Below, in pieces: positions 1 to 15,948 of a DNA stretch of 64,000 nt (within the stretch, counting starts at the first letter, position 1; each line of letters opens with the position of its first letter). The notes below the pieces were generated by a model, which saw only the letters and a program-made list of their open reading frames with translations, was not told the DNA's origin and searched no databases. The stretch is from Parapedobacter pyrenivorans. GTDB lineage: Bacteria; Bacteroidota; Bacteroidia; Sphingobacteriales; Sphingobacteriaceae. The stretch spans positions 1,228,718 to 1,292,717 of the forward strand of contig NZ_BMER01000001.1 of assembly GCF_014636865.1 (NCBI RefSeq), given 5' to 3'. The position numbers and the translations under genes are program-made.

Positions 1-1669
1 TTCCGACATGAATGTTCATACCATAGATATTTATTTTATTCGTCGTTTCTGCGATCAGCCACCTTCTGGTGTCAAAATAGCGATGGGTTTCAAAAGAAAG
101 TTCTACGCGCCGTTCATGTCGTATTTTTTCCCGCATCGCTTCCTTGCTTAAGCCGGGTGCCAGTCCAGGTAACCCCGACCGATCCCGCACGGCATTAACG
201 TAGGTATATACGGCATCCACCGGTCCCTGGGCTTCATTGAGTGCTTCGGCATAATTGAGGTATTGCTCTGCAAGCCTAAAATACACCCACGTTTTTAACA
301 CAAAACGGCCCTCCCGGATGTTCACATTCTGTTCATCCATAAACTTCTTTAGCAAGTATCCGTTTACGGTGTACAGCTCCGATCCGCCCTTTGACTTTCC
401 TTCTGCACCCGAGTTCCAGAATTGCAATTGCCGTCCCCGCCACCATGCACCGTTATAGTTGATGGTCGCGTAAAAGCGTGGCTCGCGGTTTACATACATA
501 TTTCGTATGCCTGCCGGGTAGTAGCCCGCTGGATGGGCTTCGCTTACATAGCCTTCTTCTTTGTACCCCGAAGCAGCATTGATGATGGGTTCACCATTCG
601 CTTGGTATCCGGTAATGGGCGTAGACCCATCGGCCATTTCGTATTCGTCTACGAGCCGTTGCAACGGACACAATCCGCTCCAGCCCCCCTCACTGTTGGG
701 TGCACCCCCCATTTCTTGCCAAGAGTGAACGCCCAGATTACGTGCAAAAAGCACCTCTTGATTATGTCGTTCCGTAAATACCTGCTGATAATTCTGAAGC
801 GGGTCGTTGCTCGGCGATCGATAAAGCCGATAACCAGCTGCTTCTGAGCGGTCGATACTGGCTTTTGCCGCATCAGCCGCCCGCTGCCAAAGCTGTGCAT
901 CATACGCGGGGAATAATTTGTTGCCCTCTGTATCCGTATAATCCACGTAGTCCGGATTACCGTTAAACAGGGGGCTTGCCGCGTAAAGCAACACGCGCGA
1001 TTTGAGTGCCAATGCCGCCGCCGCTGTTATGCGGCCTTCGCTGGCTGATGGTACGGTCATCGGCAGTTTCTGAATCGCATCATCGCACCGTGCAACGATA
1101 TATTCGATGCATTCCGATAGCGTATTGCGTTTGATATTAGTGAAATCCTCTGACGGCTGATACGAATGCGCGATAACGGGTACTGGCCCGTATAGTCTCA
1201 CCAATAGAAAATGGAAGAAGCCTTTCATGAATTCAGCCTCTCCAATCCAGGTCTGTTTAACCTGTTCCTCCATGGGCGTCGTCACGATATTTTCCGTAAA
1301 TAGATTAAGCCGCCTGATGGCCTGATAAGGTATTGACCAGTGTTGATCTGAGGGGACGTCGTTAGGACCCCAAGTGCCGCCATTCATCCGGTGGGAGAAC
1401 CGGTTCAACCACGACATTTCCATATCATCGGAAGCCCCGACAAACGGGTTTCTGCCCGGCAATTCGGCAAAATCAATTCCCGTCGGCAAGTAATTATAGG
1501 TTGCCGTCAAAAAACGTTCGGCATACTGCCGTTCAGCGAAGACGTCATCTATGGTGAGGTCTTCATCAGGTGCCTTGTCCAAAAAGCCTTTTTCGCAGGA
1601 TGCGAGTACGCTCGATACCAGCATCGCCAGCATCACGTATTTTATATATCCTTTCTTCATGATTTTCAT
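1..1669 (-). CDS. SusD/RagB-family outer-membrane lipoprotein, C-terminus cut by window edge
   Basis: Surface glycan-binding partner of the SusC porin encoded just upstream. The reading frame is open to base 1, so the C-terminus lies outside the window. The N-terminus has a lipoprotein signal ending in SVLASC (Cys about residue 25), then the SusD-typical GFLD start of the mature protein, helical TPR-like stretches and an ERRVELSFE-like segment near the visible end, as in the RagB/SusD C-terminal region. The start ATG at 1669-1667 overlaps the SusC stop (TAATG), implying translational coupling; an in-frame ATG at 1660 is the alternative. The ligand is not predictable from sequence. It belongs to the LacI-controlled locus 1. 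Confidence 0.93.
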   Translation of the reverse strand, partial: MKIMKKGYIKYVMLAMLVSSVLASCEKGFLDKAPDEDLTIDDVFAERQYAERFLTATYNYLPTGIDFAELPGRNPFVGASDDMEMSWLNRFSHRMNGGTWGPNDVPSDQHWSIPYQAIRRLNLFTENIVTTPMEEQVKQTWIGEAEFMKGFFHFLLVRLYGPVPVIAHSYQPSEDFTNIKRNTLSECIEYIVARCDDAIQKLPMTVPSASEGRITAAAALALKSRVLLYAASPLFNGNPDYVDYTDTEGNKLFPAYDAQLWQRAADAAKASIDRSEAAGYRLYRSPSNDPLQNYQQVFTERHNQEVLFARNLGVHSWQEMGGAPNSEGGWSGLCPLQRLVDEYEMADGSTPITGYQANGEPIINAASGYKEEGYVSEAHPAGYYPAGIRNMYVNREPRFYATINYNGAWWRGRQLQFWNSGAEGKSKGGSELYTVNGYLLKKFMDEQNVNIREGRFVLKTWVYFRLAEQYLNYAEALNEAQGPVDAVYTYVNAVRDRSGLPGLAPGLSKEAMREKIRHERRVELSFETHRYFDTRRWLIAETTNKINIYGMNIHVG

Positions 1670-4600
1670 TAATTAAAATTAACCTGAATACCAAAGTTGA
1701 TGCTCCGCTGGATTGGATAGCTGCCTACGCCGTCGTTCGATTCGGGGTCGATCACCTTTACCTGATCCCATGTAGCCAGATTCATCCCATTCACAAATAA
1801 CCGCAGCTGTTCAATACCGATCCGTCGGCTAACTTGTGTGGGAAAGGTATAGCCGACTTCTGCATTACGCAACCTGACATAGCTCGCATCGCGTTGGTAG
1901 ATGGTGCTAAACCGATAATTGTTCGGATTAATATCATCCGTTGCTGCCGGATACAACGCATTCTCAGTATTTTCCGGTGTCCACCGGTTGTCATAAAATT
2001 CGCGAAGGATGTTGTAAGAACCTTGGCCTTTTAAAAACGGCATAATGCTGGGGCCATTAAGATAGAGGCTTGTACGACCGGAACCGTTGAAAAAAACGCT
2101 CAAGTCTACCCCTTTAAAGGCAATGGTGCCACCAAAGCCATACATGATTTCAGGCGTACGGGGATAACCAATCGCCACCGCATCGAAATTGTCGACAACT
2201 CCGTCCTCGTTGACGTCTCTATATTTCACATCACCCACTCGCACCACGTCTTGAAACATCTGTTTCGGGCTATTGGCTACATCTTCAACGCTTTCAAAGA
2301 ATCCCAACGCTACCAGACCGAAAGGTTGATCTATCGGTTGACCCTTTGCCGATTGATAGGCCCAGCGTTGTACGGGCTCGTCGTTTTCTTCGATTCTGCT
2401 CCTCGCAAAGGTGAAGTTCCCCATGAACGAATAGAATATTCCGTTGTCTGTGTTCTTCTTTACTTCAATCATACCCTCTATCCCTCTGTTTGTTGCAACG
2501 CCTAAATTGCCATAAGGGATGGATGATGGATTAAATCCAGCGATGTTTGGAATGGTTCGCCGCTGGATCAAGATACCCTCCCTACGCTCATGGAAGGCAT
2601 CAACCTGCAAGGTAATCATGTTCAGGAGGTTCATATCGAAGCCAACATTTGATTTCGTAGACACCTCCCACGTTACGTCATCCGTTCCAATCTGCATTTC
2701 GTCAATTCCGGCCCAACTGGTCTGTTGGTCACCAAATAGATAACCTTGAGCGGTACGGGCGTTCATCGATGTGAGGTAGAGGAATCTACGCCCACCGATC
2801 TGATCGTTGCCCACCTGGCCATACGATCCCCGGATTTTCAATGAACCCAGGAAATCGACATCTTGCATAAACGATTCGTTGGAGACTACCCACCCTCCCG
2901 ATATGGAGGGAAAAAAGCCGAATCGCTGTCCTTTCGGGAAGTTTTCCGAACCATTGTAGCCCATATTAAACTCGGCAAAATAGGTATTTCTAAACCCATA
3001 CGTTGCCCTTGCAGCGATACCTTGCCGTCTAAACGGCAACCCATCGATGGAGGATCCCGCCGTAATGTTGATGTAGTCCCGTTGGTTGTAAAGCACCATC
3101 CCCGAGAGGTTGTGGTCGCCCAGGACCTTTTCATAATTCACAATAAAATCGGAGTAGATGGCCCGGTTTGAGCTATTCCAAAGCCAATAGTTCATTGGCT
3201 GCTCTTCGCGTAACACGGTATATTGGTCTTCGCCGGTCTGTTCATTCTTTCCCGTATAGTATTTAACTTCAAACGACTTATGCCGGTTGATGCCACCCGA
3301 GTAATGATGGTCATAGGAGAACCGACCGCTTACAGAAAGACCGGAGGTAACAACTGACGATAGATCCCACTTCGCGGAGAAAGTTCCTTGCACGTTGCTG
3401 TGCATGTGTACCGAATAACCGGCCTGTGTAGCGAGGCCCCAGGGGTTGTTTCCGATCAAAGTGGGCGTTCCCCCCGGGCTGCCATCCGGATTCCGGGCAC
3501 TATAGGCAATAGGCGGTGTAACCCGTACTGCATCCAACAGCGCGTCTGATCCGGTAGCCGGGAAATCGCCTTGCTGGATGATACCGGCAATTCCCAACTC
3601 GAAGACCAGGTCTTTACTCACATTAACATCCACATTCGATCGGAGATTGTACCGCCGCATGCGCACATTGGTTTTGTAGGCATTGGCCGGGTCATTTTTC
3701 CAAATACCGTTCTGATCGGTATAACCCGCATTGGCATAATAGCGGACAATTTCGCCTCCGCCCGTTACATTCAGGTTATTGATGGTTTGATATGTACTCT
3801 TCCGCATGATTTCGCTGGTCCAGTTGACATCCGGGTATAAGTAGGGGTCGCTACCATCCCTAAACTTTTCGAGCTGTTCGTCCGTCCACCGGGGGCGTTG
3901 CCCCACATGTTCGAGGCCCTCGTTCATTAAACTAGCGTATTCGGCGCCGTTGATGTAGTCGGGCAGCCGAATAGGTTGAAGTACCGCCGATTCCGATCGG
4001 AAAGCTACTTTCGGGCGGCCCATCACACCCTTCTTGGTGGTGATTACGATTACACCGTTTGCCCCCCGCACCCCATAGACAGCGGTTGCGGATGCGTCCT
4101 TTAACACCGAGAAGGTTTCGATTTCGTGCACGTTGACATTATCCAGGCTGCGCTCCACACCGTCGATAAGGACCATCGGCGAACGATTGCCCCACGTACC
4201 CATCCCGCGGATAAATATTTGTGCTTGATCGGATCCTGGTTCCGCGCTTGATTGCCTGGTCATGATCCCCGGCAAACGACCGCCCAATGCATTGGAAAGC
4301 GAGGGGGTACTCGTTTTGGCCAACTCCCGTGTGGCCACCGTTGAGATAGCCCCTGTTACGGATACTTTCTTCTGCGTGCCGAAACCGACCACCGTCACTT
4401 CATCGAGTTTCGCCTGCGCTTCGTTAATGGTTAACGAAAACCGCCGTTCACGATCGGTTCTCGCCTGCACCTCGAGTGGATAATACCCCACATAGGTAAT
4501 CAGGAGCATTTCTGTGGGATCGTCAATCTCCAGAACGAATTTACCATCCACATCGGTCGTAGCACTTCGCGTACTTCCTTTGATCACTACGCTGGCATTC

Positions 4601-4725
4601 GCCAGCGGGTCGTCGTTTTCATCCAGTACCCAGCCGGTGAGTACGTGTTGTGCACTGGCCACCATGGAGAGTAATAATAGGGGCAGCAACAGTAACACAG
4701 GGTGTTTGCGTTTCATTGTTTTCAT
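1669..4725 (-). CDS. SusC/RagA-family TonB-linked outer-membrane protein
   Basis: TonB-dependent outer-membrane importer of an oligosaccharide or glycoside, working with the SusD lipoprotein downstream. About 1018 residues: signal peptide 1-25 (ends VASA), a carboxypeptidase-regulatory-like beta domain (about 28-105, starting HVLTGWVLDENDDPL), a TonB plug (about 115-240, with VLIDGVER and VLKDASATAVYG) and a 22-strand barrel with a terminal aromatic/asparagine strand (INFGIQVNFN). I chose ATG 4725 because it gives a clean signal peptide. The frame extends upstream to a GTG at 4794, but that GTG lies inside a predicted LacI operator (4782-4795). Its own operator and a terminator just upstream indicate separate transcription from the preceding operon. 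Confidence 0.95.
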   Translation of the reverse strand: MKTMKRKHPVLLLLPLLLLSMVASAQHVLTGWVLDENDDPLANASVVIKGSTRSATTDVDGKFVLEIDDPTEMLLITYVGYYPLEVQARTDRERRFSLTINEAQAKLDEVTVVGFGTQKKVSVTGAISTVATRELAKTSTPSLSNALGGRLPGIMTRQSSAEPGSDQAQIFIRGMGTWGNRSPMVLIDGVERSLDNVNVHEIETFSVLKDASATAVYGVRGANGVIVITTKKGVMGRPKVAFRSESAVLQPIRLPDYINGAEYASLMNEGLEHVGQRPRWTDEQLEKFRDGSDPYLYPDVNWTSEIMRKSTYQTINNLNVTGGGEIVRYYANAGYTDQNGIWKNDPANAYKTNVRMRRYNLRSNVDVNVSKDLVFELGIAGIIQQGDFPATGSDALLDAVRVTPPIAYSARNPDGSPGGTPTLIGNNPWGLATQAGYSVHMHSNVQGTFSAKWDLSSVVTSGLSVSGRFSYDHHYSGGINRHKSFEVKYYTGKNEQTGEDQYTVLREEQPMNYWLWNSSNRAIYSDFIVNYEKVLGDHNLSGMVLYNQRDYINITAGSSIDGLPFRRQGIAARATYGFRNTYFAEFNMGYNGSENFPKGQRFGFFPSISGGWVVSNESFMQDVDFLGSLKIRGSYGQVGNDQIGGRRFLYLTSMNARTAQGYLFGDQQTSWAGIDEMQIGTDDVTWEVSTKSNVGFDMNLLNMITLQVDAFHERREGILIQRRTIPNIAGFNPSSIPYGNLGVATNRGIEGMIEVKKNTDNGIFYSFMGNFTFARSRIEENDEPVQRWAYQSAKGQPIDQPFGLVALGFFESVEDVANSPKQMFQDVVRVGDVKYRDVNEDGVVDNFDAVAIGYPRTPEIMYGFGGTIAFKGVDLSVFFNGSGRTSLYLNGPSIMPFLKGQGSYNILREFYDNRWTPENTENALYPAATDDINPNNYRFSTIYQRDASYVRLRNAEVGYTFPTQVSRRIGIEQLRLFVNGMNLATWDQVKVIDPESNDGVGSYPIQRSINFGIQVNFN

Positions 4726-4781
4726 TTGTTCATAATTTATGATGGTTTTTAATTTGCATACGTGGGTCGAACCTCCCAGAA

Positions 4782-4795
4782 AGTCAACGTTCACT
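4782..4795. promoter_or_regulatory. Predicted LacI operator upstream of susC/susD
   Basis: AGTCAACGTTCACT, an imperfect palindrome around AACGTT. It is the same element found twice between the LacI gene and the MFS operon (13091-13110 and 13163-13176). It lies 57 bp upstream of the chosen susC start, where a repressor could block transcription of susC/susD. Confidence 0.75.
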
Positions 4796-4850
4796 ATTTT
4801 TGGGAAAAAGCAAGTAATGCTTCACGAAAGCTCAGAAAGAAATGTCTAAA

Positions 4851-4873
4851 GGCGCTAGTAGGTAGCTAGCGCC
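4851..4873 (-). terminator. Rho-independent terminator of the locus 1 operon
   Basis: GGCGCTAG and CTAGCGCC pair as an 8-bp perfect stem around a 7-nt loop. On the minus strand the hairpin is followed by a T-rich tract. It overlaps the stop codon of the last operon gene (4855) and separates the operon from the independently controlled susC/susD pair. Confidence 0.7.
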
Positions 4874-5766
4874 CGATCATTTCCTATTTCTTTTAGGATT
4901 TTTTTAAGTCCGTTGATTTCATCAGACAGCCCCTTTGCGGCGTCTTCATTTGTATCATGGTTGATGATACCGATCGGGCCACGGTATGTACTCTTCCACA
5001 CCTGCCTGATCATCTCCTGTTCTACATCGCCTTGACCGGTTCTGAAAAAGCGGTCCGTAACGCCGGCCTGCAGCCCTGCTATATTCAGGGCATAAAGATG
5101 GGGCACAATCTTGGGGAAAAACTGCGGGAATCGCTCGTGATGCAACCGGGCGTGATGGAAATTATAAACGATGCCCACATTGTTGCGATTTACCGCCTCG
5201 ATGATTTCCAATTGGTTTTCTGGCTCCCCAAACCAACCGCCGTGGTTGTAGAGCGCCACCTGGCAGCCAAGTTCCTTTGCCCGATCCGCGATGTAAGCGA
5301 TGGGTTTGCTCATGGCCAAGACCTTGTTTCGTTGATTCAGCGCACTAAAGCCTCCCCACTCGCCCATCAACAACCAAATCTGTGTTTTAACCCGATTGCG
5401 TGCTATAAAGTCAAATATCTCCCGGATATATGGGTCGTCCTGAGGGTTATTCCCCGACGTCATCCAGAAAGCTGTTAAATCGATTCCATGTTTATTCAAG
5501 GCACGTAGCTCATCATCAAAGGTCGGGATGTGCTGTTCTCGCCAGTCATAGGCCAATTTGGTAATGCCCAGATCAGCCAGCATCGCTGCCCGCTCCTCGG
5601 GGCCACGTTGTTTCGAGTCAAAGGGAACCACGCACCAGGCAACGAGATTCTGTTTGGCAAACACATCGTTAACAGGCTTATTTTTCAGCACAGCACAGCC
5701 AGTAAGCAATGTGGTGGCACAAAAAATCACCGCAATGGCTAATCGTTTCATTTCTCGTTGTTTCAT
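4855..5766 (-). CDS. Xylose-isomerase-like TIM-barrel lipoprotein
   Basis: Probable sugar isomerase/epimerase or lyase of the AP-endonuclease-2/xylose isomerase-like TIM-barrel superfamily, exported and lipid-anchored. 303 residues; the N-terminus carries a lipobox LLTGC (Cys24). Conserved barrel segments include ITKLAYDWR, YNHGGWFGEP and VGIVYNFHHAR, which contain candidate metal-binding His/Asp/Glu residues. It is a paralogue of the preceding gene (5777-6685), with the same opening (LVAWCVVPFD) and the same motifs. The start at 5766 is 10 bp after that gene's stop; ATG 5751 is an alternative. Last gene of the LacI-controlled operon, with a terminator at its stop. A periplasmic or surface TIM-barrel is unusual for this mostly cytosolic fold. 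Substrate unknown. Confidence 0.85.
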   Translation of the reverse strand: MKQREMKRLAIAVIFCATTLLTGCAVLKNKPVNDVFAKQNLVAWCVVPFDSKQRGPEERAAMLADLGITKLAYDWREQHIPTFDDELRALNKHGIDLTAFWMTSGNNPQDDPYIREIFDFIARNRVKTQIWLLMGEWGGFSALNQRNKVLAMSKPIAYIADRAKELGCQVALYNHGGWFGEPENQLEIIEAVNRNNVGIVYNFHHARLHHERFPQFFPKIVPHLYALNIAGLQAGVTDRFFRTGQGDVEQEMIRQVWKSTYRGPIGIINHDTNEDAAKGLSDEINGLKKILKEIGNDRALATY

Positions 5767-5776
5767 AACGTAAAGT

Positions 5777-6685
5777 TTAGAAGTTAGTATGTGTAATCAG
5801 CTTTGTTTTTAGTTTGTTCAAACCCTTTCGCTCAGCAATAAGTGCTGCTTTTGCGTCACGGTCGGCCCGATGGTTCTGAATACTGATCGGCCCTGTGTAC
5901 CCGCTTTTATAGATCGTTTTCAATAGTATGTATTCGATATCACCTTCACCCAGTGGGGTTACATTGATCGGATCCCCGCTCGCAAGCCCGACAAGATTGA
6001 TGCATAGGAGGTGCTTTTGAATTTGCGGGTAAAATTCCGAAAAGCGATTGATATGGTGCCTGCCATGTTGAAAATTGTAAACTATTCCCACGTTATCCAT
6101 GTTTAAATGCTCAATAATCGCCACTTGATTTTCGGGTTCACCAAACCAACCTCCGTGATTGTATAAGCCCACCGTACAGCCGAGCCCCTTCGCTCGTTCG
6201 GCGACATACCGGATGGACGTAGAAATGGATTCGATCTGTTCTGGCCAAGACATTTCATGAAAGCCTTCGATCTGGTTTTCATACCCTTCAAACCAACCCG
6301 GCAGGTACCAAAGCTGTGTTTGGATACCGTTTCGCTCTAGAAATGCAAATACTTGTTCAATGTGTTCCTCGTTTGCTGGATCCGTATTTGAAGGTAACCA
6401 GAAGGCAAATAGCTCAATGCCATTGTCTTGGAGCGCCTTCCATTCGTGGTCAAACAGCGGCACGTGCTCGTCGCGCCAATCGTAAGCCAATTTGGTAATA
6501 CCCAGATCGGACAACATCTTTGCACGTGCTTCGGGGGTGCGTTGCGCTGCGTCAAACGGAACGATACACCACGCAGCAAGGTTCTCGGGGGCAAACAAAT
6601 CACCTCTCAAACGCTGAGCTGCCGCACCCTCCATGGCCAGTAGGAAAGCGGCGATTAGGGCAATCGTATTTATTACGTGTTTCAT
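5777..6685 (-). CDS. Secreted xylose-isomerase-like TIM-barrel protein
   Basis: 302-residue paralogue of the downstream lipoprotein. It has a classical signal peptide ending GAAA-Q near residue 23 instead of a lipobox. The barrel core has ITKLAYDWRDEHVP, YNHGGWFGEP and VGIVYNFQHGRHH, so the presumed active-site His/Glu/Asp residues match its paralogue. A longer frame reaching 6739 overlaps the PQQ gene; ATG 6685 is chosen because it gives the signal peptide and sits 4 bp after the PQQ-protein stop. Family members interconvert aldose/ketose sugars or process keto-sugars using a divalent metal. Placed directly after a periplasmic dehydrogenase gene, it may act on the dehydrogenase product. Confidence 0.85.
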   Translation of the reverse strand: MKHVINTIALIAAFLLAMEGAAAQRLRGDLFAPENLAAWCIVPFDAAQRTPEARAKMLSDLGITKLAYDWRDEHVPLFDHEWKALQDNGIELFAFWLPSNTDPANEEHIEQVFAFLERNGIQTQLWYLPGWFEGYENQIEGFHEMSWPEQIESISTSIRYVAERAKGLGCTVGLYNHGGWFGEPENQVAIIEHLNMDNVGIVYNFQHGRHHINRFSEFYPQIQKHLLCINLVGLASGDPINVTPLGEGDIEYILLKTIYKSGYTGPISIQNHRADRDAKAALIAERKGLNKLKTKLITHTNF

Positions 6686-6689
6686 GATG

Positions 6690-8798
6690 TCATTTTTGTA
6701 GCATGCGATCAGGCAAGGCAAACGCCACATAAGCGTCACCCGTCATGGTGCCCAATTTTCCGCCACCGGTGGCTGGAATGATAACATATTGTTTTCCACC
6801 CGCGCTGTAAGTACTTGGCACGGCAAATCCCCCGAATGGCAGCTTCGTTTCCCACAAAATCTCACCGGTATTCTTATCGAATGCCCGGAAGCGTTCATCG
6901 CGCGTAGCCCCCACAAATACCAGCCCTCCCGCGGTAGCGATACTGCCCCCGAAATTTTCGGTTCCCGTGAGCGGTATACCTTTGGCGGTCAGCTCCGGGT
7001 ATTCACCCAGCGGCACCTTCCACTTGATCTTGCCCGACTCGAGGTCAATCGCATTTAACGTACCCCAAGGCGGTTTAGTGGCTGGATACCCCTGCTCATC
7101 GAGGAACTTGTTGTAGCCCATCGAACGGTAATATGGTTTAGCGGCCACGGCTTCTTTTTCCTTACCCGCAACTTCCATATCCAGTAGGTAAGCGGCTATC
7201 AGTTGCACATCATCTTCCGGCAGATGCGCAAAAGGCGGCATGGCGCCTTTGCCTTTCTTGATGATGTCGACAACATCTTTTTGGGTGTATTTTTCAGCAA
7301 GATTTTTCAATACCGGTGTGCCATTCAATCCCTGGCGGTCGGCACCGTGGCAGCTGGCACAACCACTGGCAAGAAAAAGCCGTCGCCCGCCATGTTCGTT
7401 TTTATCTACTGTTGGCTGTTCGTTATTTACATCCTGCATGGTGATACGCCAAGCCAATTCATTCGAATTGACATAGATTACCTGATCAACTGGATCGTAT
7501 GAACCACCGCCCCATTCAGCACCACCATGTATGCCGTAATAGAGGATACCTTTAGTAGACGGGGGGATATACCAGCCCGCATCCACACTATTGAAGCGTT
7601 CACGTGCATAAGCATGCGCTTCCGCACTAATATTTGTCAAGTCATCGGCCGTAACCACCTGCTTTGAAAAAGGTTCCGGCCACTTCACGAATGGTTGCGT
7701 AGGGAAGGCATATTGGCCAGCTAGCGTACTGGCTGGTACCGGCCGTTCTTCCACCTCAGATAGCAGCTGACCGGTAAGCCGGTTGAATAGGAGCACGTTG
7801 CCTGTCTTTGTGAGCTGCACGACACCCGGCACCCGTTTTCCGTCTTGACGAAGGGTAGTCAGAATGGGTGCACAGGGCATATCCAAATCCCATAAATCGT
7901 GGTGTATCGCCTGGTAATGCCAAGCGCGTTTACCGGTTTCGGCATGCAGTGCCACGATGGAATTGCCAAATAGCTGCTCACCTTCGTTATCCGGCCTGTA
8001 AAAATCATCCTTCGGTTGTCCTGTAGAAAAATAGACCATCCCATTTTCGATGTCGACACTCAGACCGCCCCACACATTGACGCCTCCCCCCGTTTTCCAG
8101 AAATCTTGCGATCCCCAGGTTTCGTAGCCATGTTCTCCAGGCTGCGGAATGGTATGAAAGATCCACTCACGATCACCGGTCAGCACATTGAAAGCACTTA
8201 CATTTGCCGGGGAGGACCATGTCATGGCACCCACAATCACCAAATCGCCATAGATAACCGGCGCACCGGGGGAACTGATTCCCATCATGTCGGCCGGCTT
8301 TACCAAATTTTCGTTCAACGAAATGCGGCCTTGGCTTCCGAATTCAGGCACTGGTAATCCATTCGCTGCATAGATCGCGTTCAGGAAGCCACCACTCGTG
8401 AAAAATATTCGGTCCTGTTCGCCTTTTTTCCGCCAGAAAGAAATCCCTCGATTGATACCGCCGAACTGCTCGCCTTCCCTGGCGGGATTAAACCGCCAGA
8501 TTTTCGCACCCGTTACGCCATCCAGCGCAATCACCTCCTGCAGAGGTGTGGTGATATAAACCGTGCCGTCTACGATCAGCGGATTCATTTGCACATTCCC
8601 GGATTTCACCCCCGAGTTGAAAACCCACGCAACCTCTAGATCAGCTACATTTGAAGTATTGATTTGATCCAACGAAGAATATTTGGTTTGGCCGGCAGTA
8701 CCGCCGGGATACGCCCAATCAGCCTCCGAAAACGGATTGGGCGGATTGCAACCCGCAAATGCCAGTAGCGAAAATAACCAGGTAATGGGCAACCGCAT
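6690..8798 (-). CDS. PQQ-dependent dehydrogenase lipoprotein with inserted cytochrome c domain
   Basis: Predicted periplasmic or outer-membrane-anchored quinohaemoprotein that oxidises a sugar or alcohol and passes electrons to the respiratory chain. 702 residues with lipobox LAFAGC (Cys17). The N-terminal two thirds is a PQQ beta-propeller with repeats such as VIALDGVTGAKIWRF and VSAFNVLTGDREWIF. A haem-binding CASCH motif lies at about residues 479-483 (bases about 7349-7363), followed some 40 residues later by AMPPF, whose Met may be the axial ligand. Propeller repeats then resume (LNAIDLESGKIKWKV), so the cytochrome domain is inserted in the propeller. ATG 8798 is chosen over an upstream TTG because it begins the lipoprotein signal. 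PQQ synthesis genes are not in the window. Confidence 0.9.
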   Translation of the reverse strand: MRLPITWLFSLLAFAGCNPPNPFSEADWAYPGGTAGQTKYSSLDQINTSNVADLEVAWVFNSGVKSGNVQMNPLIVDGTVYITTPLQEVIALDGVTGAKIWRFNPAREGEQFGGINRGISFWRKKGEQDRIFFTSGGFLNAIYAANGLPVPEFGSQGRISLNENLVKPADMMGISSPGAPVIYGDLVIVGAMTWSSPANVSAFNVLTGDREWIFHTIPQPGEHGYETWGSQDFWKTGGGVNVWGGLSVDIENGMVYFSTGQPKDDFYRPDNEGEQLFGNSIVALHAETGKRAWHYQAIHHDLWDLDMPCAPILTTLRQDGKRVPGVVQLTKTGNVLLFNRLTGQLLSEVEERPVPASTLAGQYAFPTQPFVKWPEPFSKQVVTADDLTNISAEAHAYARERFNSVDAGWYIPPSTKGILYYGIHGGAEWGGGSYDPVDQVIYVNSNELAWRITMQDVNNEQPTVDKNEHGGRRLFLASGCASCHGADRQGLNGTPVLKNLAEKYTQKDVVDIIKKGKGAMPPFAHLPEDDVQLIAAYLLDMEVAGKEKEAVAAKPYYRSMGYNKFLDEQGYPATKPPWGTLNAIDLESGKIKWKVPLGEYPELTAKGIPLTGTENFGGSIATAGGLVFVGATRDERFRAFDKNTGEILWETKLPFGGFAVPSTYSAGGKQYVIIPATGGGKLGTMTGDAYVAFALPDRMLQK

Positions 8799-8828
8799 AT
8801 TGTCAAAAATCAATTATCGTTAGCTGAT

Positions 8829-9713
8829 TTATCCGGGAAAATTGTAACCCCATTTCCAGGTATCTTCCATGTTCGGATACTTCTTCCTGCAAGCCAGGTA
8901 ATCGTTCATCATCTCCTGCATGGTAGGGCTGAGGGTTTCGATGTAATCGGGCGTCAGCAACTGATCATTCAACAAATAGAAATGCCAGGTAGGTGGATAG
9001 GCCGCACTGTGGTAACCCATGTGCAATGTCCGCCGCGGAACTTTCATCACGTCGGTATAGCCCCTGTGTATGAGGTTGTTGTTGTAGAGCACTGCCTGGC
9101 CTGCTTTGAGCGGAACCGGAACACCGCCCGGCATTTCCACACCGACGGGTGCGTAGTGTTTGGAGCCTCCAAACGCTGCATTCTCAGCTTCCGTGTTCGG
9201 CCGATTATGGCTCCGGGGAACAATCCACAACGAGCTCTCGTCTACCAGGGGCAGGTTAATCTGCACACTGTTGTGAAATCGGTCAGGCGAAAAGAGCCAG
9301 TCTTCGATCTCATTCTGAGGTATCTGAATGATATCCCGATGCCAGCCCAGCGAATACGAAGTCCCTTCGTTGGCGGCCAGGATAGATGCGTTGTTAACGA
9401 TCAAGTCGGGGCCCAGGATCTGCTGCACAGCAGCCAATATAACCGGATGGTGGAAAGCATGATGAATCGATTCCGTCCCTGGCTTGGTAAGGAGGTGAAA
9501 ATAATACTGCCGTGCCTCTTTGCCAAAGTCGGCGAGATTATCGCCAAGATGCTGGAAAGACGAGCTGAGACTGCCACTTACATGATTGGCCTTGATTTCA
9601 GGATTGAGTAATGCGTCCATCAGCATGCGGAAATTCTGGATTTCGCGTTCGTTGAGGACATCAATGATTACATAGCCCTCCTGCAGGAATTGATCTTTTA
9701 ATGAAACTTCCAT
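8829..9713 (-). CDS. Phytanoyl-CoA dioxygenase (PhyH) family protein
   Basis: 294-residue Fe(II)/2-oxoglutarate-type dioxygenase fold, cytosolic (no signal). The HxD metal motif is H125-R-D127 in LGWHRDI, and a distal His is H216 in NNLIHRG. R228/R229 in PRRTLH are candidates for 2-oxoglutarate carboxylate binding. These residues support an intact hydroxylase. It lies 21 bp after the Gfo/Idh/MocA gene and 30 bp before the PQQ dehydrogenase gene, within the LacI-controlled operon. PhyH homologues commonly occur with Gfo/Idh/MocA and TIM-barrel genes in catabolic clusters of Bacteroidota and Planctomycetota. The substrate cannot be named from sequence. Confidence 0.88.
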   Translation of the reverse strand: MEVSLKDQFLQEGYVIIDVLNEREIQNFRMLMDALLNPEIKANHVSGSLSSSFQHLGDNLADFGKEARQYYFHLLTKPGTESIHHAFHHPVILAAVQQILGPDLIVNNASILAANEGTSYSLGWHRDIIQIPQNEIEDWLFSPDRFHNSVQINLPLVDESSLWIVPRSHNRPNTEAENAAFGGSKHYAPVGVEMPGGVPVPLKAGQAVLYNNNLIHRGYTDVMKVPRRTLHMGYHSAAYPPTWHFYLLNDQLLTPDYIETLSPTMQEMMNDYLACRKKYPNMEDTWKWGYNFPG

Positions 9714-9734
9714 GTTGTATCGAATTAGTAGGAT

Positions 9735-10889
9735 TTATAAAAATATGGTCTTCCGCTCCGTCGCCGATTGAAGCCCTGCTTCGAGCACGCGTATGGTCTC
9801 CAAGCCGGTCTCAAAATTTGGGGTAACGGGGCTATTCGTTGCGATGGCATCGAGAAAATCGACCGCTGCATGCACGAAGGTGTGTTCATAGCCGATGATA
9901 TGGCCCGCCGGCCACCAATGGTCCACATAGGGATGGCTTTCGTCGGTCGCCAATATCGTGGCAAACCCTTTCATACCTGCCTTGCCACGATTGTCGTAAT
10001 ACTTGAGCTCATTGAGGTTTTCCAGATTAAAGACCAGGCTGCCTTCGCTTCCGTATACCTCAAACGTCAGTCGATTCTTCCTGCCATTGGCAAAGCGCGT
10101 AGCCTCAAAGGAGCCCACCGCTCCGTTGCTGAATCTCACCATCATCAATGCGGCGTCTTCCACCGTTACCTCGCCCGTGCCCAAACCGCTGGCCCCCGCT
10201 TTCAGGTTGCCTGTCTGCTGTTCTTCGGCCAATGGGCGTTTCGTGATAAAATCAGCCGTCATAGCCGTTACTTCACGAATCTCACCGATGAGGTACTGCG
10301 CCAAATCGACGCAGTGCGAGTTGAGGTCCCATTGCGGTCCTGCTTTGGCCGTTTCGGCGCGCAACTGCCATGTGAGTGGAAACCCGGGGTCTGTGATCCA
10401 GTCCTGCTGGTAAGCACATCGCCAGTGATATATCGAGCCGAGCTCGCCCGAAGCGATCAGCTTTTTAGCAAGCGCCACAGCCGGCACCCGCCGATAGTTA
10501 TGGTTTAGGTAATGGGTAACCTTATTTTCTTCACAAACCCGCAACATCTCTTGCGCTTGCCGGATGTCCATGGCCATGGGTTTCTCACAGAAAATGTGTT
10601 TACCTGCGCGTGCAGCGGCAATGGCTATTTCATAATGCAAGTATTGTGGCGTGGAGATGTCGATGATATCAATGTCATCACGTTCGATCACCTTTTTCCA
10701 GTCGGTTTCAATTTCTTCCCAGCCCCACTTTTCAGCGAAAGCAGCCACGTCCTTTTCGTGGCGGCCACAGGCCACCTTAAGTACCGGTTGCATCAGGGTA
10801 TCAAAAAACAATGGCGCTTTCAGCCATGCATTACTATGGGCTCTTCCCATAAACTTATACCCGATGATGCCGATATTGACACTTTTCAT
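9735..10889 (-). CDS. Gfo/Idh/MocA-family NAD(P)-dependent oxidoreductase
   Basis: 384-residue cytosolic sugar/polyol dehydrogenase. The N-terminal Rossmann fold begins IGIIGYKFMGRAHSNAW, and the family EKP motif is at 102-104 (FCEKPMAM). The C-terminal substrate domain contains QWDLNSHCVDLAQ, which supplies the typical Asp/His active-site residues. Start ATG 10889 overlaps the stop of the TIM-barrel gene by four bases (ATGA), indicating translational coupling. Family members oxidise ring hydroxyls of sugars, inositols or glycosides. Together with the coupled TIM-barrel protein it plausibly forms a dehydrogenase/isomerase pair acting on the imported substrate. Confidence 0.92.
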   Translation of the reverse strand: MKSVNIGIIGYKFMGRAHSNAWLKAPLFFDTLMQPVLKVACGRHEKDVAAFAEKWGWEEIETDWKKVIERDDIDIIDISTPQYLHYEIAIAAARAGKHIFCEKPMAMDIRQAQEMLRVCEENKVTHYLNHNYRRVPAVALAKKLIASGELGSIYHWRCAYQQDWITDPGFPLTWQLRAETAKAGPQWDLNSHCVDLAQYLIGEIREVTAMTADFITKRPLAEEQQTGNLKAGASGLGTGEVTVEDAALMMVRFSNGAVGSFEATRFANGRKNRLTFEVYGSEGSLVFNLENLNELKYYDNRGKAGMKGFATILATDESHPYVDHWWPAGHIIGYEHTFVHAAVDFLDAIATNSPVTPNFETGLETIRVLEAGLQSATERKTIFL

Positions 10890-11758
10890 TGATTCCCAGA
10901 TTTTAGTCGATTTGCAATATTTTTCAACTCCTTAATGCTTTCCTTTACCACAGCTTCTTCCTGATTGGCATACGATGGGTGCAGGAAATCCACCTCAACG
11001 GCAAGAAATCCCGTATAGCCCTGATCTTCGAGCAACTGTGCGAGTTGATCATTGGCAATCAACCCCTTGCCGGTCGGCACACATGAAAAAAAGTACCATT
11101 CGTTTACCGGAACTTCTTTCACCGGGATCATATCCTTGATGTGGGTTGCAAAGACATGCGGGGCCAGCTTTTCCATGGCCTGGATAGGGTCATCCAATAC
11201 CCGCAGGAAGTTTCCCGAGTCAAAGTTGACACCGAAGTTAGGAGATGCCACGTTGTTGACCAAACGGAGTATCTCATCCGAATTGTAGTCGATGTGGTTT
11301 TCTACCGCGAGTTTTACACCCAGTTTAGACGCCAATTTGGTCGCTTCCGTAAATAGCTCGGATAGCTTCTCCAATTGCGGTTCGTGTGGCAGAAACCGAA
11401 ATTCCAGGCTGCTGCCCACTACCCGCATTACATCAGCCCCAATCTTGGGTGCATATTCGATATGCCGCAGCATATCCTCAAACGCCTGTTCATTTTGCCC
11501 ACCTTCCAGTCCATCCGGATGCCCCCAGGCGTACACACTATCATACCCCGATCGGTCTAACCACTGTTTAATGCCGGCTAAATAGGCATCGTCGAAGCGG
11601 GGGATGAAGCACGACTCCAGGGAAATGCCATCAATACCCAAATCATCCACTTTTTCCATGAACCCTTCAAAACTGAGTTCCTTTTCGGGTCTGTCCTGTC
11701 CGGGATAGACCTCACCGAATAAACGGTGGAAGCAATAACTATCTATTCCTACTTTCAT
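10886..11758 (-). CDS. Cytosolic sugar-phosphate isomerase/epimerase-like TIM-barrel protein
   Basis: 290-residue xylose-isomerase-like TIM barrel without a signal peptide, unlike the two exported family members in this operon. Candidate metal ligands sit in the expected order: AVENHIDY (Glu), NFDSGNF (Asp), ATHIKDM (His) and AVEVDFLHP (Glu). It overlaps the Gfo/Idh/MocA start by four bases and lies 33 bp after the MFS gene. The likely reaction is isomerisation or epimerisation of a keto-sugar. Exact specificity, for example towards inosose, 3-keto-glycoside or tagatose-type substrates, is undetermined. Confidence 0.88.
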   Translation of the reverse strand: MKVGIDSYCFHRLFGEVYPGQDRPEKELSFEGFMEKVDDLGIDGISLESCFIPRFDDAYLAGIKQWLDRSGYDSVYAWGHPDGLEGGQNEQAFEDMLRHIEYAPKIGADVMRVVGSSLEFRFLPHEPQLEKLSELFTEATKLASKLGVKLAVENHIDYNSDEILRLVNNVASPNFGVNFDSGNFLRVLDDPIQAMEKLAPHVFATHIKDMIPVKEVPVNEWYFFSCVPTGKGLIANDQLAQLLEDQGYTGFLAVEVDFLHPSYANQEEAVVKESIKELKNIANRLKSGNQ

Positions 11759-11791
11759 GATGTTCCTTTCATACCTACAAAAATCATAACC

Positions 11792-13072
11792 TTACTGCAT
11801 AGCTGTACTTGCCTTTCCGGCAGCACGCTTCCTTCTTGACAAATGGAGGGCAGCAAATACAACAACAAGTATCCCTGGGAGTACCGAAGCCAGACGCAAC
11901 GTATACGCGCCTGCATTAAGCTTCAGATCTGCCCAAAGCTGCATATCCGCTCCATCGGTCGAATCTTTTAGTTGCTCGACTGAAAAGCCGATGGGAACGG
12001 CGCCCAATAAATGAGTATCGAAGATTTGACCCAGCCAAGGCAATGCCAACGCCGTCGAAAAAAGCCCCGCTCCGCCCATTAACGACAAACCCAATGGCCC
12101 GGTTTTGGGAAGATTCTCCGAAACGAACCCGATCATTGTGGGCCAGAAAAAGCAGATGCCCATGGCGAAAATCCCTGCGGCCAAGAACGACAGATATCCG
12201 TGCGCATATCCCAATAATTGCAAGCCTAAAAAAGAAAGGACAGCCGATACAAAAAGCAGTTGCGTTACACTAAGGTGTTTCAGGATGTGCCTTGCATTGG
12301 CCCGTCCGATGGTCATAATGCCGTTGATAAACACCAATAACAAGATGGAGTGTACCCCCACCGCCGATAGCAACTCTACAATCCATTGGTTGGTAGCCAA
12401 CTCGGTAGCAGCGGTAAGCAACATGCAACACAACATTAATAGGAATAGCGGGCTCAGACACGCACGGAACATTTCCCGGTCAGATACACCCAGCTTCACT
12501 CGCTCAGATTTCGGGAAACGCTGCTTCCAGAACATTGCGCCGTAGGCTAATGTCGGAATCAACATCACAACCATTTGAACTTTCCAATTAAATCCCGCGG
12601 AGGTTAATAGGTAAGCCAATACCCCGCCGATGACAATACCGCCCGGAAACCAGATGTGCCAGTCATTTATCCGTTTAGTTTTATCCTCGTCCGCATAGAT
12701 ACTGCTCAACATGGAATAGCTTGCCGATTCGACAAAGCCATTGGCTAAGCCCACAAGCAAGGTTGATAAAAATAGCGACCGGTAGTCAGACGAAAAAATT
12801 GTCCATACAATGCCGATGGCATGGCCAAGGAATGCCAACAGAAACAGCCGTCCCATCCCGATCCAGTCGCATAATACCCCACCCAATACCATCGCACCGG
12901 TAAATCCCCAAAAAGCCGCAGCCGCCACATTGCCAATCTGCATCGCGGTGAGCTCAAATTCTTCTCCCAATACACCCAGTAGATTGGCCCGGATCGCAAA
13001 GGTCAGTGCGGTCACTACCAAGGCTACACAGGAAGCCCTATAAATTCGTTTCGTATGGATATTTCCGCTCAT
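11792..13072 (-). CDS. MFS sugar permease
   Basis: 426-residue inner-membrane transporter with about 12 hydrophobic segments and a loop after TM2 (GGVLCDWIGMGRLFLL) resembling MFS motif A. It starts MSGNIHTKRIY at ATG 13072, 18 bp downstream of the perfect operator palindrome 13091-13110. As the first gene of the LacI-controlled operon, it most likely imports the glycoside or the product of the periplasmic enzymes. The C-terminus is basic (RRKRAAG). The fold assignment is firm, the substrate inferred only from context. Confidence 0.88.
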   Translation of the reverse strand: MSGNIHTKRIYRASCVALVVTALTFAIRANLLGVLGEEFELTAMQIGNVAAAAFWGFTGAMVLGGVLCDWIGMGRLFLLAFLGHAIGIVWTIFSSDYRSLFLSTLLVGLANGFVESASYSMLSSIYADEDKTKRINDWHIWFPGGIVIGGVLAYLLTSAGFNWKVQMVVMLIPTLAYGAMFWKQRFPKSERVKLGVSDREMFRACLSPLFLLMLCCMLLTAATELATNQWIVELLSAVGVHSILLLVFINGIMTIGRANARHILKHLSVTQLLFVSAVLSFLGLQLLGYAHGYLSFLAAGIFAMGICFFWPTMIGFVSENLPKTGPLGLSLMGGAGLFSTALALPWLGQIFDTHLLGAVPIGFSVEQLKDSTDGADMQLWADLKLNAGAYTLRLASVLPGILVVVFAALHLSRRKRAAGKASTAMQ

Positions 13073-13090: not shown

Positions 13091-13110
13091 AATAGTCAAC
13101 GTTGACTATT
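13091..13110. promoter_or_regulatory. Predicted LacI operator, perfect 20-bp palindrome
   Basis: The 14-bp core AGTCAACGTTGACT with flanking AAT/ATT makes a perfect 20-bp palindrome centred on AACGTT. It lies 18 bp upstream of the MFS start in the LacI-MFS divergent intergenic region. LacI-family dimers bind such CG-centred palindromes. It matches the elements at 13163-13176 and 4782-4795. Confidence 0.85.
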
Positions 13111-13162
13111 ATGGCGCAATTTTATAGATTAACTTCCAAACCGCCAAATTTTTTTACAAAAA

Positions 13163-13176
13163 AGTGAACGTTGACT
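13163..13176. promoter_or_regulatory. Predicted LacI operator upstream of the lacI-type gene
   Basis: AGTGAACGTTGACT, one mismatch from the perfect palindrome at 13091-13110, located 40 bp upstream of the regulator start. A TATTTTTG sequence (13186-13193), matching the Bacteroidota -7 element TAnnTTTG, follows it, so binding here would fit autorepression. The two sites are about 70 bp centre to centre, near seven DNA turns, which could allow looping. Confidence 0.8.
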
Positions 13177-13216
13177 ATTTTTTTGTATTTTTGTTTTTCA
13201 AGCTTACAATCGAAAA

Positions 13217-14299
13217 ATGGGGTCTGCAAAGAAACGAACCATAGGAATAAAAGATATTGCACGATATGCCGGTGTGTCCACAGGCCCAGTGGACAAGATT
13301 CTCAATAACCGCGGCGGCGTTTCCAAGGCAACCGAAGCCAAAATCCTCAAAGCCATCGAGGAACTGGGATACCAGCCCAATATATTTGCAAGCCGACTCA
13401 AATCGGCCAAAGAGTACCGTATCGCTGTCATCATGCCTTACGCCACGCATGATATCCCTTATTGGGGCCACCATCAGCAAGGCTTCGATGCTGCGATGCA
13501 TGAACTAAGCCCCTATGGTATTGAACTGGAGGCGTTATCCTTTAGCCAAAACAACACCCTTTCGTTTAAAGACGCCGTATCAAAAGCGATTCTCGGTAAT
13601 TTTCAGGGAATACTCATGGTGCCAGTATTTCACCAAGATACCGAGCGTCTGCTCAACGCCACCGCTAGAAAAAACATCCCGGTGGTTTTTTTTGACAGCA
13701 ACATCAGCGGGCTTGGACAGCTATCCTTTATCGGCCAGCATTCACGAGATAGCGGATACACAGCTGCCGAAATCATGGCGCGATGCGTGCCTGACCAATC
13801 TAAAATTCTGATCGCAACCATCAAGAAAAAAGACGACAATCACCTGCATTTCGCAAGCCGAGAAGCCGGCTTCATCAGCTATTTCAAAGAGAAAAGCCAC
13901 CGATTGATTACCTTTGAGAACCGAGTCGAAGACGAACAAACCATCGGAAAAGAACTGCTCGATATTATTCAATCAACCCCCGCCCTGTCAGGCATCTTTG
14001 TAACCAACGATATCCACAAATTGATTCGGCTACTTCCCGCAAGTGCCTTAGACAAGCTATGTCTGATTGGTTATGACTTAATCGATGCGAACATCGAATA
14101 CCTAAAAAAGGAGCACATCAGTTTTCTTATCTCCCAACAACCGCAGATGCAAGCTTACAAAGGGATTAGGGTACTATACGAATACCTGATCCTTAAGAAG
14201 AAACCCAGTCCCGAGATCTTCGTACCTATAGATATTATCACCCCTACCAACATCAAGTATTACAATACGATAGAGTTACGGGATGCTGTGCAGTTTTAA
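13217..14299 (+). CDS. LacI-family transcriptional regulator
   Basis: 360-residue repressor/activator. The N-terminal helix-turn-helix (about 8-60) reads IKDIARYAGVSTGPVDKILN, a variant common in Bacteroidota in place of the classical VSxxTVSR. The rest is a periplasmic-binding-like effector domain with the two-lobe pattern (IAVIMPYATHD, QGILMVPVF, LIGYDLIDANI). It is transcribed divergently from the MFS operon, with two operator palindromes in the 144-bp intergenic region and a third before susC. It probably senses an intermediate of the locus 1 pathway. Start ATG 13217 matches the family N-terminal length. Confidence 0.95.
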   Translation: MGSAKKRTIGIKDIARYAGVSTGPVDKILNNRGGVSKATEAKILKAIEELGYQPNIFASRLKSAKEYRIAVIMPYATHDIPYWGHHQQGFDAAMHELSPYGIELEALSFSQNNTLSFKDAVSKAILGNFQGILMVPVFHQDTERLLNATARKNIPVVFFDSNISGLGQLSFIGQHSRDSGYTAAEIMARCVPDQSKILIATIKKKDDNHLHFASREAGFISYFKEKSHRLITFENRVEDEQTIGKELLDIIQSTPALSGIFVTNDIHKLIRLLPASALDKLCLIGYDLIDANIEYLKKEHISFLISQQPQMQAYKGIRVLYEYLILKKKPSPEIFVPIDIITPTNIKYYNTIELRDAVQF

Positions 14300-15906: not shown

Positions 15907-15948
15907 TGACCTTTGCTGCTGCTATCCGATAGGTCTATAAAAAGAGCG

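What the first reader, a model, noticed from the sequence alone, without database searches (positions are those of the whole stretch)
4855..13072. Candidate periplasm-plus-cytoplasm oxidative glycoside pathway
A lipoprotein PQQ/haem c dehydrogenase is co-transcribed with two exported TIM-barrel proteins, an MFS permease, a cytosolic TIM-barrel/Gfo-Idh-MocA pair and a PhyH dioxygenase. Known 3-keto-glycoside routes use Gfo/Idh/MocA enzymes and TIM-barrel partners. Here a PQQ enzyme could perform the oxidation outside the cytoplasm, with exported TIM-barrels acting on the keto product before uptake. I know of no described pathway with this exact combination.
Basis: inference. Interest (0 to 1): 0.62.

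Follow-up and report, generated by a model that had tools for sequence, protein, structure and literature searches.

The report
Periplasmic PQQ-and-TIM-barrel sugar oxidation regulon
A conserved, sugar-regulated gene cluster in soil Bacteroidota pairs a cell-envelope PQQ dehydrogenase with an exported TIM-barrel enzyme of unknown reaction, and probably oxidises and takes apart a glycoside or sugar outside the cytoplasm before finishing it inside, a combination not yet described biochemically.

Summary
Seven tightly packed minus-strand genes at 4855-13072 encode MFS, TIM barrel, Gfo/Idh/MocA, PhyH, PQQ/haem-c lipoprotein and two exported TIM barrels.

Among 201 genomes of the order, the PQQ clade occurs in 6, all with the exported TIM barrel (7 genomes). 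Parts recur in Parapedobacter, Desertivirga, Mucilaginibacter and Siphonobacter. In Verrucomicrobia the exported TIM barrel and the PQQ enzyme are fused in one protein, and the fused PQQ parts fall in the same clade. More distant PQQ paralogues in Pleomorphovibrio are fused to a 3-keto-disaccharide hydrolase domain, which supports the 3-keto idea.

The linear pathway is not established. The exported TIM barrel occurs with the PQQ enzyme alone, or with Gfo/TIM/PhyH without that PQQ clade, so it is the hub. It also lacks the usual E/D/H/E metal ligands. P. soli suggests C1 oxidation as a live rival.

Verdict: a real, conserved new variant of oxidative glycoside/sugar catabolism; substrate and regiochemistry unknown.

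The parts
1..1669 (-). SusD-type lipoprotein, 3' end runs about 133 bases beyond the left edge of the window
   Evidence: ORF in L034 6585-8387; follows SusC; same arrangement in P. defluvii L025; family read from position and N-terminus, not scanned
1669..4794 (-). SusC/RagA TonB-linked outer-membrane transporter (true start probably ATG at 4725)
   Evidence: TIGR04056 962 bits against cut-off 368
4781..4796 (.). LacI-type operator, 1 mismatch to TAGTSAACGTTSACTA, upstream of SusC
   Evidence: 3 sites in window, 0.05 expected; equivalent site in P. defluvii
4855..5766 (-). TIMx2, exported lipoprotein xylose-isomerase-like TIM barrel without the usual metal ligands
   Evidence: PF01261; lipobox LLTGC; alignments
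5777..6739 (-). TIMx1, exported TIM barrel, tandem paralogue of TIMx2 (about 46% identical; start probably 6685)
   Evidence: PF01261
6690..8813 (-). PQQ dehydrogenase lipoprotein with haem-c domain inserted in the propeller (start probably 8798)
   Evidence: PF01011 556 bits, PF13442; HHDLWD, TKTGN and CxxCH motifs
8829..9713 (-). PhyH-family Fe(II)/2-oxoglutarate dioxygenase
   Evidence: PF05721; H125, D127, H216, R227/R228 invariant
9735..10889 (-). Gfo/Idh/MocA dehydrogenase, relative of levoglucosan dehydrogenase
   Evidence: E102, K103, D188, H192 invariant in alignment A6
10886..11758 (-). TIMc, cytosolic xylose-isomerase-like TIM barrel with intact metal site E153/D180/H206/E255
   Evidence: PF01261 103 bits
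11792..13072 (-). MFS permease
   Evidence: PF07690; orthologues 62% in Desertivirga and 67% in G113
13093..13108 (.). LacI operator, perfect palindrome TAGTCAACGTTGACTA
   Evidence: identical site in Pleomorphovibrio
13162..13177 (.). second LacI operator, 1 mismatch
13217..14299 (+). LacI-family regulator, divergent
   Evidence: PF00356 and PF13407; orthologues with the cluster in P. defluvii, Pleomorphovibrio, Siphonobacter

Best explanation
A LacI-controlled catabolic regulon for one class of glycoside or sugar taken up through SusC/SusD. In the periplasm the PQQ/haem-c lipoprotein oxidises a secondary hydroxyl (most likely C3) of the sugar ring and passes electrons through its haem to the respiratory chain. 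The exported TIM barrels then act on the activated keto-sugar, by elimination, hydration or epimerisation, and so open or cleave it without a classical glycoside hydrolase. The product is imported by the MFS permease, and the Gfo/Idh/MocA enzyme, the metal-dependent TIM barrel and the PhyH dioxygenase complete its conversion in the cytosol, with the Gfo enzyme acting on the same C3 position as reductase or dehydrogenase. Shown here: gene content, regulon, conservation, functional linkage PQQ-TIMx, intact catalytic motifs. Inferred: C3 regiochemistry, the TIMx reaction, the order of steps, the substrate.
For: Gene linkage: TIMc-GFO-PhyH-PQQ-TIMx plus LacI in Parapedobacter defluvii; TIMc-GFO-PhyH-MFS-PQQ-TIMx in Desertivirga; the parts in one 30-40 kb locus in Mucilaginibacter-type genomes, and PQQ-GH5-SusCD-TIMc-GFO-PhyH-TIMx in Siphonobacter. 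PQQ clade in 6 of 201 genomes of the order, all six with TIMx (7 of 201) (hypergeometric 8e-11, ignoring kinship); 10 of 10 clade members lie near TIMx. TIMx-PQQ-haem c fused in Verrucomicrobia, in the same PQQ clade with support 100/97. PQQ paralogues fused to the 3-keto-disaccharide hydrolase domain PF06439 twice in Pleomorphovibrio; PF06439 4 kb from the clade PQQ in Siphonobacter and beside a PQQ-TIM pair elsewhere in the window's genome. GFO is nearest to levoglucosan dehydrogenase, a C3 dehydrogenase (PMC7676230). The operon has SusCD but no glycoside hydrolase. One operator joins both units.
Against: TIMx is paired with GFO/TIMc/PhyH without this PQQ clade in Pleomorphovibrio, and with PQQ without the GFO clade in P. 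soli and G025, so the two halves are separable. The PF06439-fused PQQ enzymes are a different subclade from the window's. In P. soli the pair sits with lactonase-like and sugar-acid-dehydratase-like genes, which suggests C1 oxidation. The PQQ domain scores best against the glucose/quinate/shikimate subfamily, though below its cut-off. Nothing fixes the substrate or the role of PhyH.
Confidence: 0.45

Rival explanations
1. The PQQ enzyme is a periplasmic C1 sugar dehydrogenase (aldose to lactone), as in membrane glucose dehydrogenase, and TIMx is a lactonase, mutarotase or epimerase for the sugar or sugar acid. The cytosolic enzymes process the aldonate.
For: PQQ domain most similar to the glucose/quinate/shikimate subfamily (TIGR03074 424 bits against TIGR03075 232) with the HHDLWD and TKTGN motifs. 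P. soli operon RhaT-like symporter, galactarate/altronate-dehydratase-like, L-fuconolactonase-like, PQQ, TIMx. Another PQQ paralogue of the window genome sits with a mandelate-racemase-type dehydratase and a KDPG aldolase.
Against: The window cluster itself has no sugar-acid dehydratase, kinase or aldolase. GFO is closest to a C3 dehydrogenase. PQQ relatives are fused to 3-keto-disaccharide hydrolases.
Confidence: 0.27
2. TIMx is the hub. It acts first and releases or isomerises a sugar from the imported glycan; the PQQ enzyme (periplasm) and the GFO/TIMc/PhyH set (cytosol) are two alternative or parallel oxidations of that same product, not successive steps.
For: TIMx is the only common member: with PQQ and without the GFO clade (P. 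soli, G025), with GFO/TIMc/PhyH without clade PQQ (Pleomorphovibrio), with GFO alone (Dyadobacter).
Against: Fusion and tight adjacency of TIMx to the PQQ enzyme suggest direct substrate transfer. TIMx has no recognisable hydrolase motif and lacks the usual metal site.
Confidence: 0.18
3. The PQQ protein does not use PQQ in this organism, or serves mainly to dump electrons, and the working pathway is a levoglucosan-type cytosolic route (GFO, TIMc) with accessory exported proteins.
For: No pqqE match over cut-off and no pqqC match in the cluster genomes (the pqqC search had no positive control). GFO-TIMc resembles LgdA-LgdB1 (PMC10066097).
Against: PQQ scavenging without synthesis is reported to be usual in Bacteroidota that carry the importer PqqU (PMC12124388). 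Catalytic Asp/Lys motifs and the haem site are conserved. The genome keeps at least six such proteins.
Confidence: 0.08

Closest known systems
Levoglucosan dehydrogenase pathway LgdA-LgdB1-LgdB2-LgdC (Bacillus smithii, PMC7676230; Paenarthrobacter, PMC10066097)
   Same: Gfo/Idh/MocA dehydrogenase closest to LgdA plus PF01261 TIM barrels; glycosidic bond opened by oxidation, elimination, hydration, reduction
   Different: No PQQ dehydrogenase, exported TIM barrel, PhyH or SusCD is described there; the window GFO scores 366 bits against the LGDH equivalog cut-off of 650
Bacteroides 3-keto-glycoside pathway (BT_2157-BT_2160 type: glycoside 3-dehydrogenases, PF06439 3-keto-disaccharide hydrolase, PF01261 partner; from memory, NCBIfam models NF058561 and NF058563 exist)
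   Same: Oxidation at C3, TIM-barrel partners, envelope-located steps
   Different: NAD-linked Gfo/Idh/MocA enzymes do the oxidation there; the window GFO is far below those models (37 and 31 bits against 750 and 650); no PF06439 gene in this operon
Periplasmic FAD/cytochrome glucoside 3-dehydrogenases (Agrobacterium type, from memory)
   Same: C3 oxidation of glycosides outside the cytoplasm, electrons to cytochrome c
   Different: FAD enzyme of another fold, not PQQ
PQQ enzymes of the glucose/quinate/shikimate subfamily; type II quinohaemoprotein alcohol dehydrogenases (1kv9, 1yiq)
   Same: PQQ propeller with haem c
   Different: Haem-c domain is inserted inside the propeller (residues 475-545) rather than at the C-terminus; scores below the subfamily cut-offs
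DepA-type PQQ dehydrogenases that oxidise a C3 hydroxyl of deoxynivalenol (PMC10975547, abstract only)
   Same: PQQ oxidation of a secondary ring hydroxyl to a 3-keto product
   Different: Terpenoid substrate, no TIM-barrel partner known to me

Membership tests
Levoglucosan dehydrogenase (LgdA equivalog NF052479) | whole-protein score over the curated cut-off of 650 | tested here: not met
   366 bits, E 1.6e-109
Levoglucosan dehydrogenase (LgdA) | catalytic Glu and His of the Gfo/Idh/MocA fold (E103, H193 in LgdA of LG01, PMC10066097) | tested here: met
   E102, K103, D188 and H192 invariant in 10 relatives; equivalence judged from motif and spacing
Bacteroides glycoside/disaccharide 3-dehydrogenase (NF058561, NF058563) | score over curated cut-offs | tested here: not met
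   37 against 750 and 31 against 650 bits
3-keto-glycoside (C3 oxidation) pathway in general | 3-keto-disaccharide hydrolase PF06439 in the cluster | tested here: not met
   None at the window cluster; present near PQQ in Siphonobacter, beside another PQQ-TIM locus of this genome, fused to PQQ in Pleomorphovibrio
3-keto-glycoside pathway in general | production of a 3-keto sugar | not testable with these tools
   Needs enzyme assay
PQQ-dependent dehydrogenase, glucose/quinate/shikimate subfamily (TIGR03074) | score over curated cut-off 833 | tested here: not met
   424 bits, better than the methanol/ethanol subfamily 232; Pfam PQQ PF01011 met, 556 bits
PQQ-dependent dehydrogenase | catalytic Asp and PQQ-contacting Lys motifs; haem-c site | tested here: met
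   HHDLWDLD, TKTGN, CASCH present in the window protein; the first motif differs in Siphonobacter
Xylose-isomerase-like metal-dependent TIM barrel (PF01261), TIMc | Pfam cut-off and E/D/H/E metal ligands | tested here: met
   103 bits against 31; E153, D180, H206, E255 invariant
Xylose-isomerase-like metal-dependent TIM barrel, exported TIMx | E/D/H/E metal ligands | tested here: not met
   Y173, N202/H204, N228, Ile/Leu at the four aligned places across 40 sequences; Pfam cut-off itself met
PhyH Fe/2OG dioxygenase | HxD...H iron triad and 2OG-binding Arg | tested here: met
   H125, D127, H216, R227/R228 invariant in 9
Polysaccharide utilisation locus | SusC/SusD pair co-regulated with catabolic genes, usually with glycoside hydrolases | tested here: inconclusive
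   SusCD and shared operator present, no glycoside hydrolase in the window operon; GH5, GH78, GH130 and apiosidase-like genes in the Mucilaginibacter and Siphonobacter loci

The most novel reading that the evidence does not exclude
PQQ dehydrogenase plus metal-ligand-free exported TIM barrel is a new, respiratory-chain-coupled way of cleaving glycosides in the periplasm (C3 oxidation by PQQ, then TIM-barrel elimination or hydration), used as two proteins in Bacteroidota and as one fused protein in Verrucomicrobia, with a related TIM barrel joined to other, possibly redox, modules (DUF6797, cupredoxin) in Planctomycetes.
Probability: 0.35. Interest if true: 0.78.

Novelty: new variant of a known kind. 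Interest (0 to 1): 0.58.

Why it matters
If right, glycosides can be opened in the periplasm by a PQQ enzyme that feeds electrons straight to the respiratory chain, with no hydrolase and no NAD. It would give a reaction to a widespread uncharacterised exported TIM-barrel family (more than 500 matches in genome contigs, Bacteroidota to Planctomycetes), and explain part of why Bacteroidota that seem unable to make PQQ keep several PQQ dehydrogenases. The operator and regulon make the inducer directly testable.

Tried and rejected
Viral contigs: no relative of GFO. Search for other members of the LacI regulon: the only other own-genome operator match lies inside an aspartokinase/homoserine-dehydrogenase-like gene and one in P. 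defluvii lies near a PorP/SprF-like gene; both judged chance. Considered that the PQQ-PF06439 fusion might be general: not seen in 296 Bacteroidota, where matches covered only the PQQ part. Considered that the PQQ clade might occur without TIMx: no case in 201 genomes of the order or 24 TIMx genomes; a sample of 395 of the phylum held only the window genome, so it says only that the clade is rare. Tree first built with one wrongly cut paralogue, then repeated correctly, same result. Literature searches for PQQ with 3-keto-glycosides or SusCD loci found no description; searches cover open-licence papers only.
Full report
WHAT IS THERE. In order of transcription: MFS permease (11792-13072), cytosolic TIM barrel TIMc (10886-11758), Gfo/Idh/MocA enzyme GFO (9735-10889), PhyH dioxygenase (8829-9713), PQQ/haem-c dehydrogenase (6690-8813), exported TIM barrels TIMx1 (5777-6739) and TIMx2 (4855-5766). 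Spacing runs from a 4-base overlap to 33 bases. SusC follows (1669-4794, TIGR04056 962 bits), then SusD, which runs off the left edge. A LacI-family gene is divergent (13217-14299).

REGULON. A perfect palindrome TAGTCAACGTTGACTA lies at 13093-13108 between LacI and the operon, a one-mismatch copy at 13162-13177, and another at 4781-4796 in the 129-base gap before SusC. Three matches are found in the window with up to two mismatches, against 0.05 expected. P. defluvii has matches at the two equivalent places, and Pleomorphovibrio has the identical palindrome before TIMc. The only other own-genome match is inside an amino-acid biosynthesis gene. So MFS-to-TIMx2 and SusCD most likely form one small LacI regulon. 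It contains an outer-membrane glycan transporter but no glycoside hydrolase (sequence observation). Binding of LacI to these sites is inferred from conservation and position, not shown.

CONSERVATION. In 201 genomes of the order, TIMx-type proteins occur in 7, the PQQ clade in 6, all among those 7, and the GFO clade (over 600 bits) in 4, all among those 7; hypergeometric 8e-11 and 5e-7, ignoring kinship. In 24 genomes chosen for TIMx, PQQ matches fall into two classes: nine at 983-1346 bits, all near TIMx, and paralogues at 655 bits or less. Of the ten clade members counting the window, eight are directly beside TIMx; in two Siphonobacter genomes PQQ is about 9.5 kb away in the same locus. P. 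defluvii keeps LacI, TIMc, GFO, PhyH, PQQ, TIMx, SusC, SusD. Desertivirga keeps TIMc, GFO, PhyH, MFS, PQQ, TIMx. Mucilaginibacter-type genomes hold the parts in one 30-40 kb locus with GH5, GH78, GH130, apiosidase-like, esterase and SusCD genes. Siphonobacter has PQQ, GH5, SusCD, TIMc, GFO, PhyH, TIMx, apiosidase-like, esterase, LacI. Pleomorphovibrio has LacI, TIMc, GFO, PhyH, TIMx but no clade PQQ; several Dyadobacter have GFO-TIMx; Bryobacterales and Solibacter MAGs have TIMc-GFO-TIMx.

FUSIONS. In two Verrucomicrobia MAGs one ORF holds a TIMx domain, the PQQ propeller and the haem-c domain (L076, L102). A tree of 32 PQQ sequences puts these two with the ten TIMx-linked PQQ enzymes against 20 others, support 100/97. 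In Planctomycetes and one Verrucomicrobiales MAG TIMx is fused to DUF6797, in two of the four such ORFs scanned also to a plastocyanin-like domain. In Pleomorphovibrio two PQQ paralogues of another subclade carry a C-terminal 3-keto-disaccharide hydrolase domain PF06439 in the same ORF. This fusion was not seen in 296 other Bacteroidota. PF06439 genes also lie 4 kb from the clade PQQ in Siphonobacter and beside a PQQ-exported TIM pair elsewhere in the window's own genome. PF06439 is itself common here (25 matches in the window genome), so single adjacencies weigh little; the fusions weigh more.

CATALYTIC SITES. PQQ: HHDLWDLD and TKTGN, the places of the catalytic Asp and the PQQ-contacting Lys in glucose dehydrogenase (from memory), and CxxCH are present; the first motif differs in Siphonobacter. 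GFO: E102, K103, D188, H192 invariant; the nearest characterised relative is levoglucosan dehydrogenase (6a3f, E 3.9e-92; NCBIfam 366 bits against cut-off 650). TIMc: E153, D180, H206, E255 invariant. PhyH: H125, D127, H216, R227/R228 invariant. TIMx: at the four metal-ligand places 40 sequences have Tyr173, Asn202 (or His204, depending on the alignment), Asn228 and mostly Ile/Leu, while D50, D74, R76, E86, H175, N184, N202, H205, N228 and D275 are invariant.

COFACTOR. No pqqE match over cut-off in ten cluster genomes and no pqqC match in twelve, though the latter search had no positive control. PMC12124388 reports that PQQ synthesis genes were absent from Bacteroidota carrying the importer PqqU, which suggests scavenging.

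MECHANISM. Preferred model: SusCD import, periplasmic PQQ oxidation at C3 with electrons to the respiratory chain, TIMx action on the keto-sugar, import by MFS, completion by GFO, TIMc and PhyH. Gene content, conservation and linkage are shown; regiochemistry, the TIMx reaction, order and substrate are inferred. Two facts limit the linear reading: TIMx occurs with PQQ but without the GFO clade (P. soli, G025) and with GFO/TIMc/PhyH but without the PQQ clade (Pleomorphovibrio); and in P. soli the PQQ-TIMx pair follows a RhaT-like symporter, a galactarate/altronate-dehydratase-like and an L-fuconolactonase-like gene, which fits C1 oxidation. TIMx is the one constant member and is therefore the best first target.

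COMPARISON WITH THE KNOWN. Levoglucosan catabolism joins LgdA (Gfo/Idh/MocA) to PF01261 TIM barrels by oxidation, elimination, hydration and reduction (PMC7676230, PMC10066097). Bacteroides 3-keto-glycoside enzymes and Agrobacterium FAD glucoside 3-dehydrogenase are known from memory and from NCBIfam names. None of these uses PQQ. PQQ oxidation of a C3 ring hydroxyl is known for deoxynivalenol (PMC10975547). No paper found describes PQQ enzymes with 3-keto-glycoside enzymes or TIM barrels. I therefore file it as a new variant of a known kind.

Noticed in passing
window 23208-47633 (+): Large co-directional locus: SusC/SusD, two BNR (sialidase-like) proteins, GDSL esterase, SDR, PALP enzyme, DHDPS/NanA-type aldolase, MlrC (M81), NANM-like kelch protein, aldo-keto reductase, MFS, class III aminotransferase; looks like a sialic-acid-type catabolic locus with unusual amino-acid-type enzymes.
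   Followed up: partly
window 21262-22389 (+): GH127-like ORF matches only the last quarter of the catalytic domain plus the middle domain; probably a truncated or frameshifted gene.
   Followed up: no
window 15913-16677 and 16689-17393 (+): Two neighbouring exported proteins that look like tandem paralogues (similar RHRxYP...HIK...RRTIxFPDGAK stretches); families not searched.
   Followed up: no
L030 7810-19347 (own genome C1:1737809-1749346): Second PQQ locus: mandelate-racemase-type dehydratase, two PQQ enzymes, a probable transporter, an exported TIM barrel and an FG-GAP protein with a 3-keto-disaccharide hydrolase domain.
   Followed up: partly
L145 9966-12977 and L160 1619-4540 (Pleomorphovibrio): Natural fusions of a PQQ/haem-c dehydrogenase with a C-terminal 3-keto-disaccharide hydrolase domain.
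   Followed up: yes
L100, L089, L108, L081 (Planctomycetes and Verrucomicrobia): TIMx domain fused to DUF6797, in L100 and L089 also to a cupredoxin domain; function unknown.
   Followed up: partly
L024 4598-11039 (P. soli): PQQ-TIMx pair in an operon with RhaT-like symporter, galactarate/altronate-dehydratase-like and L-fuconolactonase-like genes.
   Followed up: partly
own genome G000: 25 matches to PF06439 (3-keto-disaccharide hydrolase) and at least six PQQ/haem-c dehydrogenases of this family in one genome with no pqqE over cut-off.
   Followed up: partly
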